A stretch of 64,000 nt of DNA from Ancylostoma caninum (lineage: Eukaryota > Nematoda > Chromadorea > Rhabditida > Ancylostomatidae), in contig JBAJFG010000538.1 of NCBI GenBank assembly GCA_037903475.1, positions 124,001-188,000 of the forward strand, written 5' to 3'. The notes under the pieces were generated by a model, which searched no databases, was not told the DNA's origin, and saw only the letters and a program-made list of their open reading frames with translations. Each line of letters begins with the position of its first letter. Position 1 is the stretch's first letter. Below, one piece after another: positions 56,503-64,000 of this stretch. The translations under genes and the position numbers were made by a program.

Positions 56503-57264
56503 GGAGGCGTCGGACATTTTCGCCGCGAGTGCCCCTCACCTGCAGCAGGGATCGGAGGTAGTAACCGGAGCTCAGGTACGCGTTTCAACACTAACGTTGC
56601 TGCGACTGGAAGACCAGTCACCCGCGCCCCACAACCTCGCCTCATGAACTGCGCAGCATCTCCTCCGTCCACTCCTGGTTATTCATCTTTGGATGAGGCG
56701 CAGGCCCACATCGCTCAGCTATCACTGTCCCTTCGGGAGCGCGAATCTCAGCTGGACCATTCGAACGCACGCGTTGCCGCTCTACTCCAACGCAATGAAG
56801 AACTCGCGCAGTCGGCTTTTGATCATCATGTCACTCCGACTGCCCCGCTTCCCTCCTTACCTGACGTACGCCTTCTGTTTCTTTGCACCATATCCGTTCT
56901 CTGTCTCCTAACACCTTGTACAGCGGTAGACATTTGGCTCTGTCCTAAGGACAAACCGACAAATCTGTTCATCGTCCCACAGTCGTACAACTGCTCCGGG
57001 TTGTTACCCATCTCGTCTACCCCTTTGGAAAAGGTGTCCTTACAAATATTTCGCCCTAACACCAAAATGTATTCCACACCTGCCTCGTTCTGCAAGATCA
57101 TTCGCCACTCTGTTGTCTACTCCGTGAGTTTCTTTGGCTCTCGTCGTGAAGCACACACAGAAACTCACCTCGCGGTTTCCGCGGAGGAATGCAAGCAAAT
57201 GTTACCATCTCAACTGCTAACATGTAAAAATTTTCTTTCAAAGGAGAAACAAGCTCACCATTAG
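56503..57264 (+). pseudogene. E2 gag tail continuing into an envelope-like N-terminus
   Basis: In the same frame as gag, the knuckle remainder is followed by a heptad-like stretch (near 56700-56815, LSLSLRERESQLDHSNARVA), then a hydrophobic, signal-peptide-like segment near 56869-56925, and about 100 residues with several Cys and an N-x-S site, ending at TAG 57264. The last part looks like the start of a secreted or membrane glycoprotein, as in retroelement env proteins; it is cut short and has no transmembrane anchor. pol is absent between gag and this part, so it is either an internal deletion or a copy of a spliced RNA. The env assignment is tentative. Confidence 0.5.
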
Positions 57265-61163: not shown

Positions 61164-64000
61164 TCACAGCGAATTCATCCGTTTCCTGAAACGCGTATTG
61201 TAAGAATGAGAAATTGGTGCTGGTGGGTTGTCAGGTGGAAGTGTTACCTTGTGACAGTATCCGACGAGCTCGACAGGGGCTGCTTCGATGTTCTCCAACA
61301 CAGCCTGCTCGGCTGCAGGATGCCATGGTGAGGTAAACACAGGTCCAGCTAAGGTGAAACACTTTTTAACTTGGTTCATGTGCACCTGTCGTGGTTTGGA
61401 TTGTGGTGCAGTGATACTAACAATCGTGAGATGGGGTGGGTTGACAGCTATGACACGAAACTGACCTAACCAAGGAAAACACAATTTGTGGGAAAGACCG
61501 GGTTTAGGTGCCAAATCGCGTAAGAATACTCGGTCGCCTACCTGTATTGCTAACGGTGCTAAACCTCCCTTGTCGTACTGCTTCTTCATCGCTTGGCTCC
61601 TCTTCCTGTTGTACTCTGCTGCGGCTGTCCATGCCGAGTGCAGCGCAGAGATGAGCGCCTCCTTGTAAAAGGGGGTGTCATCATCTAAAGGAACGTGCCG
61701 CTGTGTCTGATGTTTGATTAGCAAATCGATGTTAAGGACGGGATCTCGACCGAACACTAAGAAAAATGGTGATTCGTTGGTACTACTGTGGGTGGTGGTA
61801 TTATATGCGAATGTGCAAGCGGGGAGAAAAAGATCCCAATCGAGCTGGTTGGCGCTAATGTACGTGCGGAGCATCTCCTGAAACGTCGCAAATACGCGCT
61901 CGCAGACACCGTTACCTTCGTGATGGTACGGAGTAGTGAAATAACGGTCTATGCGCAGGAGGCGCCCTAGTTCAGATAGGAGTTCCCCTTTGAGATAAGA
62001 AGCGTTGTCCGTAACGAGTTCAGTCATAGCGCCAAATTTCAAAATGCACTCGGTCATGATAGAATGAGCGACCGTAACAGCAGTGCAATCAGGCAGAGCC
62101 ACTGAGATGACGTATTTAGTAAAGTGGTCTATGAGACACATGATGTACTTGTTGGAGCGGGCGGACGAGTGGTATGGTCCGCTCAGGTCTAGGTAAACTT
62201 TACTAAACACGGTATTACAGAGGACAGGGATGAGGTTCTCCCGGTTGGTAGGATGCGGTCGCTTTCTTTGGCAAAGTTCGCAAGAACGTACAAACTTGAA
62301 GATATCGTCTTTCATGGATGGCCAGTAAAAACGCCGCGCGATTTTGGCGAGGGTCTTCTTCCAACTGAAGTGTCCCCCAGCCGTAGGACTAGAGTGAAGG
62401 GCCAAACATATAGCTTCTCGTAGCTTAGATGGTACTACTATTGTGTCAGAGTGTCGGTTAGGTCGGCCTCTCTTGGGGTCGCAAAAATAGAGGCATCCAT
62501 TTTTCTTGATGACACACTTGTTTGCGAATTCAAAATAGTAGTCTCTGTCGTCAGTGCCGGCATTGGATGGAAACGCGCCGGTTTCGAGTAAGTGCATGAC
62601 GGTGGAGCAGAACGGATCTTGCTTCTGCTCTATCAGAATATCATAGGGTCGGATTCGAATCGCGCCAGATGGAGTATGAGGCGGACTACAGGTGTGCATG
62701 GGGCCTATTGGATGGTGAGCCAGGCATCGAGGAAACTCTACCAGGTCGTCACTTTCAGGGGAGTCATCTCTGAACTGGTTTTCGGGGTTAGTGTTATGGC
62801 TCAGATGATCCGCGACGACGTTGGAAGAACCCTTGAGATACTCAATGACAATGTCGTAGCTTTGCAGTTCCACTGCCCAGCGTGCGAGGTTGTCGTGGGT
62901 CTTGCCATGTCGGAGGAGAAATGTCAGTGGCTTATGGTCCGAGAAAACCCGAGTACGGTTTCCGTAGATGGTCGTGCGAAAAAACCGGAGTGCGCTGATC
63001 ATTGCGAACAGCTCGATGTGGGTAGGGCTCCATTTTTGTTGGGAGGCGGAAAGGGTCTTACTGAAGTAACCTACGGCGGCCAAAGTGTTGGAGTTGTCTT
63101 GCTGTTGGAGTAGTGCGGCTCCCACAGCCATTTTGCCACCATCCGTATGAAGGATAAATTCTTTATCCTGAGGAAATACGAGGCAGGGTCGGGATGTCAA
63201 GGCTTCCTTAAGTTTGACGAAGGCGCCCTGTTCGGCCGGACCCCAGCTAAAGGCGACGTTTTTCTTACACAACTCGTACAACGGAGCTGCTGTAGCTGCA
63301 AACCCCTGTATGAATTTGCGAAAGAAATTGGCCATGCCGAGAAAACTTTTGACTCCCTTGGTGGTGGTGGGGACGGGCATTTCTCGAATCGCACGAATGT
63401 TACGCTCGGCCGGTGCGTAGGAACTGCCTGAAATCTCATGTCCCAGGAAGGTAATCTTGGACTGCGCAATGCTAGTCAGTTTTTTCCCAGAGACTTTGAT
63501 GTTAAAAGTGCGGAACCGTTCCAATACCTTCTTTAGAGAAAGAAGGTGTGAGTCGAAATCCTTATCGAACACGATAATGTCATCGAGATAGGCTAGACAG
63601 TTGTCGTCTAGGCCTGTCAAGATACGGGACATAGCTCGGCAAAAGTAAGCTCCAGCGTTTCGAAGCCCGAAGGGGAGGTACACAAACTGATAGATGCCCC
63701 GGTGAGTCGCCCAGCCGCATTTGCGCTGACTTTCTGGGGAAAGTAAGAGCTGCATGTACCCAGATGCCAGGTCAAAAGACGTGTAGAAACGATGACCTGC
63801 CACTTTTTCCAGCAAATCCTCGATGCGAGGCAGTGGGTACCTATCCGGAATGGTGATAGCGTTTAAAGGGCGAAAGTCAAGACAGACTCGAAGAGATCCG
63901 TCCTTTTTCTTGACTAGAACAGTGTTGTGTACCCATGGTGTATCGCTTTCCACGATGCGGCCAGACTTGAGCAACTTGTTAATATGCTCGTCTAGCTCTT
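61164..64000 (-). CDS. pol: E3 pol: Ty3/gypsy-type reverse transcriptase, RNase H and integrase
   Basis: An intact frame enters from the right edge and ends at TGA 61164 (at least 936 residues). RT: LVKKKDGSLRVCLDFRPLN and the catalytic YLDD (about residue 130 from the Met at 63974). RNase H: HTDGGK, the Glu in HIELFAM, FSDHKPL and the ADHLS Asp. Integrase: an HHCC zinc domain (HSSPTAGGH … CELCQRKRP), then the DDE core with Asp in YLDLSGP, Asp in TDNAS and Glu in GVCERVF. Order RT-RH-IN is that of Ty3/gypsy elements, not Copia. Protease and gag should lie to the right, outside the window. All catalytic residues I checked are present, so this pol could be active, in contrast to the broken helicase ORF that follows it. 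Confidence 0.95.
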   Translation of the reverse strand, partial: ELDEHINKLLKSGRIVESDTPWVHNTVLVKKKDGSLRVCLDFRPLNAITIPDRYPLPRIEDLLEKVAGHRFYTSFDLASGYMQLLLSPESQRKCGWATHRGIYQFVYLPFGLRNAGAYFCRAMSRILTGLDDNCLAYLDDIIVFDKDFDSHLLSLKKVLERFRTFNIKVSGKKLTSIAQSKITFLGHEISGSSYAPAERNIRAIREMPVPTTTKGVKSFLGMANFFRKFIQGFAATAAPLYELCKKNVAFSWGPAEQGAFVKLKEALTSRPCLVFPQDKEFILHTDGGKMAVGAALLQQQDNSNTLAAVGYFSKTLSASQQKWSPTHIELFAMISALRFFRTTIYGNRTRVFSDHKPLTFLLRHGKTHDNLARWAVELQSYDIVIEYLKGSSNVVADHLSHNTNPENQFRDDSPESDDLVEFPRCLAHHPIGPMHTCSPPHTPSGAIRIRPYDILIEQKQDPFCSTVMHLLETGAFPSNAGTDDRDYYFEFANKCVIKKNGCLYFCDPKRGRPNRHSDTIVVPSKLREAICLALHSSPTAGGHFSWKKTLAKIARRFYWPSMKDDIFKFVRSCELCQRKRPHPTNRENLIPVLCNTVFSKVYLDLSGPYHSSARSNKYIMCLIDHFTKYVISVALPDCTAVTVAHSIMTECILKFGAMTELVTDNASYLKGELLSELGRLLRIDRYFTTPYHHEGNGVCERVFATFQEMLRTYISANQLDWDLFLPACTFAYNTTTHSSTNESPFFLVFGRDPVLNIDLLIKHQTQRHVPLDDDTPFYKEALISALHSAWTAAAEYNRKRSQAMKKQYDKGGLAPLAIQVGDRVFLRDLAPKPGLSHKLCFPWLGQFRVIAVNPPHLTIVSITAPQSKPRQVHMNQVKKCFTLAGPVFTSPWHPAAEQAVLENIEAAPVELVGYCHKVTLPPDNPPAPISHSYNTRFRKRMNSL

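What the first reader, a model, noticed from the sequence alone, without database searches (positions are those of the whole stretch)
57261..64000. Ty3/gypsy-type retrotransposon with a UPF1-like helicase ORF in the env position
Seen: an intact RT-RNase H-integrase frame is followed on the same strand by an ORF carrying all main superfamily 1 helicase motifs in UPF1/DNA2 order, overlapping the end of pol. E1 at 21.4 kb, with LTRs and target duplication, carries a homologous helicase next to a gag. Known: LTR elements normally encode gag, pol and sometimes env; Helitrons carry PIF1-type helicases with a Rep domain, which is not the case here. Inference: a nematode retrotransposon lineage has captured a helicase that may help reverse transcription, RNA packaging or escape from nonsense-mediated decay. 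I do not know a description of it.
Basis: partly seen in the sequence, partly recalled or inferred. Interest (0 to 1): 0.9.

Follow-up and report, generated by a model that had tools for sequence, protein, structure and literature searches.

The report
Nematode retrovirus-like element with own helicase
A family of jumping genes in parasitic roundworms carries, besides the usual retrovirus-like genes, a helicase resembling the cell's RNA-surveillance enzyme UPF1 and a virus-type membrane-fusion protein built into its capsid gene, a gene layout I know of in no other retroelement.

Summary
Window 57261-63998 (-) is one decayed copy (B) of a Ty3/gypsy lineage whose better-preserved copies span 13.4-13.8 kb: LTR - ORF1 - ORF2 (RT-RNaseH-integrase) - ORF3 (UPF1-like SF1 helicase, frames of 1,176-1,413 aa) - LTR. 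In 9 of 19 other fetched helicase loci pol lies just upstream on the same strand. Pol and helicase distances correlate (r = 0.87, 11 taxa, Mantel p = 0.0002); helicase dN/dS is 0.10 in the diverged pair where it could be computed. Named close relatives come from eight strongylid genera. E1 is confirmed (4-bp duplication, LTRs 99.8%) as an internally deleted derivative. Corrections: the window helicase is broken and does not replace env. A class III fusion glycoprotein (gB/nyamivirus-like fold) lies inside ORF1, between Gag zinc knuckle and protease, in one frame of about 1,370 aa. Splice-site-like motifs precede gag and helicase in most families, and one natural copy lacks the leader intron exactly, so the helicase is probably made from spliced RNA. 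Its role on genomic RNA is inferred, not shown. My searches found no description; one relevant paper (Chary & Hayashi 2025) could not be read.

The parts
61167..63998 (-). ORF2 of element B: RT - RNase H - integrase (944 aa here, open at window end; continues to about C1:188277)
   Evidence: Pfam RVT_1 2.9e-23, RT_RNaseH 6.6e-25, Integrase_H2C2 3.2e-20; related L013 pol best PDB match Ty3 Gag-Pol 6.5e-115; ORF continues in L014
60975..60993 (-). likely start of the helicase mRNA exon: 3' splice-site-like CTACTTTCAG just before it, ATG 18 nt later near 60975 (consensus match only)
   Evidence: WINB sense 3007; no RNA evidence
59416..60975 (-). helicase piece 1 (N-terminal disordered region and conserved N domain), first frame
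   Evidence: ORF 59413-61230; tblastn of its conserved part ('hN') to L010, L013, L017, L022 and others
58727..59965 (-). helicase piece 2 (middle domain), second frame, ends at an in-frame stop
   Evidence: tblastn 'hM' to other copies; no Pfam match
57764..58723 (-). helicase piece 3: RecA1, motifs I (GTGKT), II (DEAS), III (GDVNQ)
   Evidence: AAA_11 6e-10; motifs; UPF1 in PDB search 6.6e-06
57261..58061 (-). helicase piece 4: RecA2, motifs V (VDSVQGRE), VI (RLNVAITRCR), third frame
   Evidence: AAA_12 5.2e-39; motifs
53460..53801 (+). 5' LTR of the outer element A (3' LTR at C1:194062-194403, outside the window)
   Evidence: 344 bp 100% identical to L027 6561-6904; 4-bp duplication GTAG
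55429..57204 (+). ORF1 of outer element A (Gag, CCHC, coiled coil, signal peptide, start of class III env), truncated near the junction with B; an in-frame stop lies at 56500-56502
   Evidence: gag families and weak CCHC; 74% and 62% to B's gag-env; env hit C1:181034-181210
21428..21858 (+). E1 5' LTR (duplication GTAA at 21424-21427)
21859..21873 (+). E1 primer-binding site GGTAGCAGCGAGTGG, shared with 8 of 9 other 5' LTR ends read
22533..23249 (+). E1 gag
   Evidence: Retrotrans_gag 1.6e-11
23257..23838 (+). E1 helicase piece (motif I; AAA_11 under cut-off)
24368..25033 (+). E1 helicase piece (AAA_12, motifs V-VI)
   Evidence: AAA_12 4.9e-37
25035..25068 (+). E1 hairpin AAGTCCGAGGTCGGACTT and polypurine tract before the 3' LTR, shared by the lineage
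25069..25499 (+). E1 3' LTR (duplication GTAA at 25500-25503)

Best explanation
What it is (shown): a Ty3/gypsy endogenous-retrovirus-like lineage of strongylid nematodes, 13.4-13.8 kb in the two copies measured, LTR - ORF1 [Gag, CCHC, coiled coil, signal peptide, class III fusion glycoprotein, transmembrane helix, aspartic protease] - ORF2 [RT, RNase H, integrase] - ORF3 [disordered N-terminus, conserved N domain, UPF1-like SF1 helicase core] - hairpin, PPT, LTR. How it likely works (inferred): ORF2 is reached by +1 frameshifting at the ORF1 stop (TTT-TAG or TCC-TAG). ORF1 is threaded through the ER membrane, Gag inside, Env outside, protease inside, like a flavivirus polyprotein. The helicase is translated from a subgenomic RNA spliced from a donor 37-56 nt after the 5' LTR to an acceptor just before the helicase ATG. 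It acts in trans, as a processive RNA translocase, on the element's long unspliced genomic RNA, which keeps introns and has its ORF1 stop 7.6 kb from the 3' LTR end: most likely helping it escape nuclear retention and nonsense-mediated decay and reach the particle. This is the job that the spliced extra protein CERV does, without being a helicase, in Cer1 of C. elegans (export).
For: Architecture; env fold; helicase fold. Co-inheritance. Purifying selection on the helicase. Spread over strongylid species. Splicing: leader donor-like sites in 5 of 6 families, acceptor-like sites before gag and helicase ATGs, and L024, which has its own TSD and lacks exactly the GT-AG leader intron present in its relative L025. 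+1 relation of ORF2 to ORF1 in the four families read. ORF1 stop to 3' LTR end 7.6 kb in C588. CERV: PMC10309623, passages seen.
Against: No RNA or protein data for this genome. Splice and frameshift sites are consensus matches. In the L013 family the ATG after the acceptor is out of frame with the helicase frame, L028 has no near in-frame ATG, and E1 has no clear donor. The helicase lacks the UPF1 CH domain, so no direct link to the NMD machinery is indicated. Cer1 itself has no helicase described. Some copies lack the helicase (C16, C54, C363), though they look truncated or deleted. Contig C42 (L023) shares L024's 3' half and flank but has another 5' half with the leader kept, so one of these two contigs may be misassembled. 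The env model is of middling confidence.
Confidence: 0.43

Rival explanations
1. The helicase is a packaged replication factor: it unwinds RNA structure or RNA-DNA hybrids ahead of reverse transcriptase, or loads Gag on RNA, allowing a long retroelement genome; comparable to nidoviruses, whose large RNA genomes carry a UPF1-like SF1 helicase.
For: Element length 13.4-13.8 kb (coordinates); helicase core resembles UPF1 and, further off, SARS-CoV-2 nsp13; co-inheritance with pol; helicase parts kept along with gag and cis signals in deleted derivatives L023-L025 and E1.
Against: Ty3/gypsy elements of similar size manage without a helicase (recalled); the helicase is a separate ORF in another frame, with no fusion to Gag or Pol that would ensure packaging. 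Retention of both ends is also what internal deletion gives by chance.
Confidence: 0.28
2. The helicase counters the worm's small-RNA defence (strongylid exWAGO/secondary siRNA pathway targets LTR elements), for example by stripping Argonaute or RdRP products from element RNA.
For: exWAGO shows a preference for LTR-derived small RNAs in strongylids (PMC13195028, passages seen); SF1 helicases such as MOV10/ZNFX1 act in small-RNA pathways (recalled; ZNFX1 is among the structural matches).
Against: UPF1, not ZNFX1, ranks first in both sequence and structure.
Confidence: 0.15
3. Neutral passenger: a host UPF1-like gene transduced by the element, carried without function.
For: The window copy and many others are broken; the nearly identical pair L013-L016 gives dN/dS 0.68 on few changes.
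Against: dN/dS 0.10 (L010-L022, dS 2.2) and pN 0.11 against saturated pS 0.79 (L017-L025); young pairs 0.23 (L011-L021) and 0.32 (L010-L012); motifs I, II, III, IV, V, VI kept in 5 of 6 open frames; conserved across genera; pol-helicase co-inheritance.
Confidence: 0.05
4. Chance adjacency or assembly artefact of an unrelated helicase gene and a gypsy element.
For: In the window alone only one junction is seen.
Against: Same order in 9 of 19 other fetched helicase loci, between LTRs in C588 and C9, at different insertion sites, and in other species' gene models P0002, P0012, P0014.
Confidence: 0.01

Closest known systems
Ty3/gypsy LTR retrotransposons (Metaviridae), e.g. yeast Ty3
   Same: PR-RT-RNaseH-IN order; closest solved pol is Ty3; CCHC Gag; PBS, PPT, LTRs and short duplication
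   Different: Two extra genes: class III env inside ORF1, and a UPF1-like helicase after integrase
Cer1 of C. elegans (PMC10309623, abstract and passages seen)
   Same: Nematode LTR element (Ty3/gypsy: recalled); an extra protein expressed from a spliced mRNA with TTTCAG acceptors, acting on unspliced genomic RNA
   Different: CERV is not described as a helicase; its ORF does not resemble Env proteins according to the passage
Atlas virus and nematode BEL/Pao endogenous viruses (PMC9094657, passages seen)
   Same: Strongylid host; virus-derived fusion glycoprotein within a long polyprotein
   Different: BEL/Pao pol, class II phlebovirus-like env at the polyprotein C-terminus; the word helicase does not occur in the main text
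Metazoan envelope-carrying gypsy elements / errantiviruses (Chary & Hayashi 2025, title seen in a reference list; text not held)
   Same: Ty3/gypsy elements with a captured env; type III fusion glycoproteins in gypsy and BEL elements are mentioned in PMC13172572 (passages)
   Different: Env is a third ORF in insect errantiviruses (PMC12992720, passage); whether nematode gag-env fusions are described by Chary & Hayashi is unknown to me
Bdelloid rotifer LTR elements with captured ORF3 (PMC5408684, passages seen)
   Same: Extra enzyme ORF downstream of pol
   Different: GDSL esterase, DEDDy exonuclease or paramyxovirus-like env; helicase occurs there only in a reference title
UPF1/NAM7 helicases
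   Different: No CH domain found; own N domain and disordered N-terminus; encoded by a retroelement
Nidovirus nsp13
   Different: Positive-strand RNA virus; different N-terminal domains (recalled)

Membership tests
Ty3/gypsy LTR retrotransposon | RT closest to Ty3 among solved structures | tested here: met
   7q5b Ty3 Gag-Pol 6.5e-115, 4ol8 Ty3 RT 1.9e-84, next 'Enzymatic polyprotein' 1.5e-44 (on L013). I know of no solved BEL/Pao RT to compare
Ty3/gypsy LTR retrotransposon | PR-RT-RNaseH-IN order, LTRs, PBS, PPT | tested here: met
Ty3/gypsy LTR retrotransposon | short target-site duplication | tested here: met
   4 bp in 7 of 10 copies read: E1, outer element A, L015, L021, L024, L025 and C16; none at C588, C9 and L023
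Errantivirus / retrovirus gene order | env as a separate ORF downstream of pol | tested here: not met
   env lies between CCHC and PR in one frame in C588 (L029) and in P0059, P0063; 16 of the first 30 env hits sit in open frames of at least 1,270 aa (content of each frame not checked)
Class III viral fusion glycoprotein | gB/rhabdo-G type ectodomain fold | tested here: met
Class III viral fusion glycoprotein | membrane fusion activity | not testable with these tools
   -
UPF1-like SF1 helicase | SF1 motifs and UPF1-like core fold | tested here: met
UPF1 (NMD factor) orthologue | N-terminal CH (UPF1_Zn_bind) domain | tested here: not met
   Not among the 23 families listed for the 21 aligned relatives scanned against Pfam at E<=0.01
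Helitron | Rep/HUH nuclease with PIF1 helicase | tested here: not met
   No Rep or PIF1 family among the Pfam hits of the frames scanned; LTRs and integrase present instead
Potentially autonomous element | open ORF1, ORF2 and ORF3 in one LTR-bounded copy | tested here: met
   C588 copy: 1368, 1077, 1280 aa, LTRs 99.25%, no TSD seen; same locus again as C75, separate insertion C80

The most novel reading that the evidence does not exclude
A retroelement lineage with a gene plan of its own: a membrane-threaded Gag-Env-Protease polyprotein (Gag and protease on the inner side, a class III fusogen outside, cut by signal peptidase, a furin-like protease and PR) reached into Pol by +1 frameshifting, plus a UPF1-like helicase made from a spliced RNA that shields or moves the intron-bearing genomic RNA. 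In effect a retrovirus combining a flavivirus-style structural polyprotein with a nidovirus-style helicase.
Probability: 0.4. Interest if true: 0.92.

Novelty: new variant of a known kind. Interest (0 to 1): 0.83.

Why it matters
UPF1-type helicases sit at the centre of RNA surveillance; an element that has kept one under selection across several nematode genera makes testable how retroelements deal with nonsense-mediated decay and with export of intron-bearing RNA. An env placed in frame between Gag and protease breaks the gag-pol-env rule and predicts a particle-assembly route that I do not know from retroviruses. Strongylids are major parasites whose LTR elements also feed extracellular small RNAs (PMC13195028, passages), so the element's biology bears on parasite genome evolution.

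Tried and rejected
Rejected: 'helicase replaces env' (env is in ORF1); 'gag next to the window helicase is its own gag' (opposite strand, outer element A); 'the frame after the + strand gag is unrelated' (it is the env start); 'gag-helicase elements are copies of spliced subgenomic RNA' as a general rule: the gag/helicase junctions of L024 and L025 and the second junction of L015 show short shared sequence rather than GT-AG, and the first L015 junction is no splice either; only the leader of L024 is a clean splice. A 5' splice-like site soon after the helicase stop (score 5 or more of 7 in the L010, L013, L022 and L021 families; random 60-nt windows 8.5%) is below that score in the L017, L025, L028, L011, L009, B and E1 ends and is left as a curiosity. 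I first counted C9 among the slippery ORF1 stops; its frame leaves the PR match before the end, so it is not counted. Copies without helicase: of the 11 of the first 30 env hits unlinked to AAA_12 I looked at 6. C59 and C41 keep part of the helicase, C363 and C54 show no pol or helicase after PR, C16 is LTR-bounded without helicase and PPT, and C124 shows nothing at the expected place, the only part of it read. Five were not examined (C223, C323, C613, C29, C458). Rows dropped: one search used 80 of 96 AAA_12 rows and 50 of 88 env rows (most omitted rows are further pieces of listed loci or weaker). The 96 AAA_12 matches were not sorted into element and host genes.

Not obtained: genome-wide RT and helicase-core counts (genome search answered only), so the share of this RT clade lacking a helicase is unknown; a protein search with pol; the text of Chary & Hayashi 2025; the species name of the genome. 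VIA-align is a second look only, and families not listed there are not excluded.
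Full report
Check of the observation. ORF 61167-63998 on the minus strand carries reverse transcriptase, RNase H and the integrase zinc-binding domain, and two downstream pieces on the same strand carry AAA_11 and AAA_12, the UPF1/DNA2-type SF1 helicase domains. Motifs I-III lie in piece 57764-58723 and V-VI in 57261-58061. The helicase of this copy is not intact: its parts occupy three frames, with one in-frame stop besides.

The genome. 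The window is C1:124001-188000 of an unnamed 348 Mb genome. AAA_12 gives 96 matches there, element and host genes not sorted; 13 lie without internal stops in open frames of at least 1,000 aa. I fetched 20 stretches around top matches, covering 19 helicase loci besides the window copy. In 9 of these 19 (L010, L011, L013, L017, L018, L019, L022, L026, L028) pol lies directly upstream on the same strand. The other ten are LTR-bounded deletion derivatives (L015, L021, L023, L024, L025), fragments or nested copies (L009, L014, L016, L020), or cut by a contig end (L012). Not all are independent: C75 and C588 (L017, L019) share flanks and are one locus, as are the 3' halves of C42 and C113 (L023, L024); C80 (L018) is a separate insertion.

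Full structure. The C588 copy has LTRs of 402 bp (99.25% identical) and spans 13.4 kb; the C9 copy has LTRs of 325 bp (98.8%) and spans 13.8 kb (my arithmetic). In C588 ORF1 is 1,368 aa, ORF2 1,077 aa and ORF3 1,280 aa, stop to stop. The PBS begins GGTAGCAGCGA in all 10 5' LTR ends read and continues GTGG in 9, outer element A differing. A hairpin of the form AAGTCCG-loop-CGGACTT followed by a polypurine tract before the 3' LTR was found in 15 of 17 ends examined (same-locus copies included), E1 among them; the L013 family keeps the stem through a compensated pair.

Spread and co-inheritance. In the protein search 33 of the 34 hits with E below 1e-60 carry names, all from eight genera that I know as Strongylida (Oesophagostomum, Ancylostoma, Haemonchus, Cylicocyclus, Heligmosomoides, Trichostrongylus, Nippostrongylus, Teladorsagia; the order is recalled); the remaining 21 hits are weaker SF1 helicases from other sources (only 7,971 candidates were scored). 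Gene models P0002 (O. dentatum) and P0012 (H. polygyrus) join integrase and helicase, and P0014 (O. dentatum) joins, by Pfam and my reading, gag, an env piece, protease, RNase H and helicase. Pol and helicase distances over 11 taxa and 51 pairs correlate with r = 0.87, Mantel p = 0.0002. Both trees hold (L013,(B,P0026)) and (L017,P0014) as starred groups and place L010, L022, P0002 and L028 together (starred only in the helicase tree). They differ in where the L017 pair, L011 and P0012 attach, without starred support. Of the first 30 env hits 19 have an AAA_12 match on the same strand within 16 kb downstream, against 0.0018 expected per hit.

Expression (inferred). ORF2 lies +1 to ORF1 in the four families read (L013, B in L014, L017-L019, L028); their ORF1 stops read TTT TAG in three and TCC TAG in L028, shapes known to favour +1 slippage (recalled). 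A 5' splice-like site lies 37-56 nt after the LTR in 5 of 6 families, E1 being the exception; random windows reach the same score in 8.5%, though those are 60 nt against 80 nt here. A 3' splice-like (T)TNCAG lies 6-18 nt before the gag ATG in six copies read (C588, C9, C79, B, L025, L032); E1 shows none clearly. Before an in-frame helicase ATG such a site lies 18-76 nt upstream in B, L010, L011, L022 and L019; in L013 the ATG is out of frame and in L028 the next in-frame ATG is 244 nt away. One natural copy, L024, carries its own TSD (GGAC) and lacks exactly the GT-AG leader intron that its relative L025 keeps: it looks reverse-transcribed from spliced RNA. In Cer1 the extra protein CERV comes from a spliced mRNA with TTTCAG acceptors and is needed for export of unspliced genomic RNA (PMC10309623, passages). 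I therefore place the helicase on the genomic RNA, between transcription and packaging, as first choice, and reverse transcription or packaging as second.

E1 and window B explained. The C16 copy has two identical 432-bp LTRs whose sequence equals E1's 5' LTR (100% over 431 bp), and a 4-bp duplication CTTA. It keeps a 1,438-aa ORF1 frame and pol, but lacks helicase, hairpin and PPT. E1 keeps gag, helicase and PPT. They are complementary deletion derivatives of one family. In the window, B lies reversed inside an outer element A whose LTRs are 100% identical over 344 bp with duplication GTAG.

Novelty. Search listings 22, 23, 32, 36, 39, 40, 137 and 138 and passages of PMC5408684, PMC7264820, PMC10309623, PMC13172572, PMC12992720, PMC13195028 and PMC9094657 showed no description of a UPF1-like helicase in an LTR element nor of env between Gag and protease. 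Chary & Hayashi 2025 is not held, so the env part may be known. I rate it a new variant of a known kind: a Ty3/gypsy element by pol and cis signals, with a layout of its own.

Noticed in passing
window 53460-64000 and C1:188001-194403 (L014, L027): Outer element A (LTRs 100% identical over 344 bp, duplication GTAG) encloses element B in reverse orientation; no LTR of B was seen at the left junction near 57205-57261, so the nesting involved a deletion or template switching.
   Followed up: partly
E1 25035-25068; L010, L011, L013, L017-L019, L021-L025 before the 3' LTR: A conserved hairpin (AAGTCCG / CGGACTT, with a compensated pair in the L013 family) precedes the polypurine tract; possibly a packaging or plus-strand priming signal.
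   Followed up: partly
L039/L043 (C16): An LTR-bounded copy of the E1 family with duplication CTTA keeps gag-env-PR and pol but lacks helicase and PPT; its 3' LTR is preceded by an inverted copy of the LTR start.
   Followed up: yes
L024 6142-6240: A natural copy that lacks exactly the leader intron of its relative L025, a fossil of splicing; contig C42 (L023) shares its 3' half and flank but not its 5' half.
   Followed up: partly
L010, L013, L021, L022 just after the helicase stop: A 5' splice-like GGTGAGT/GGTAAGT lies 15-31 nt after the helicase stop in several families; some LTRs contain TTTCAG, so a 3'UTR intron spanning PPT and U3 is conceivable.
   Followed up: partly
protein P0079 (622 aa, unnamed source, 21-kb contig): A relative of the env (27% identity) with its own N-terminal signal-like segment and no gag in the protein; it may show the state before fusion.
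   Followed up: no
window 40887-43416: Related satellite-like arrays with 50-bp and 59-bp periods (7 copies each in the main blocks).
   Followed up: no
window 31089-31362: Perfect tandem duplication of 137 bp.
   Followed up: no
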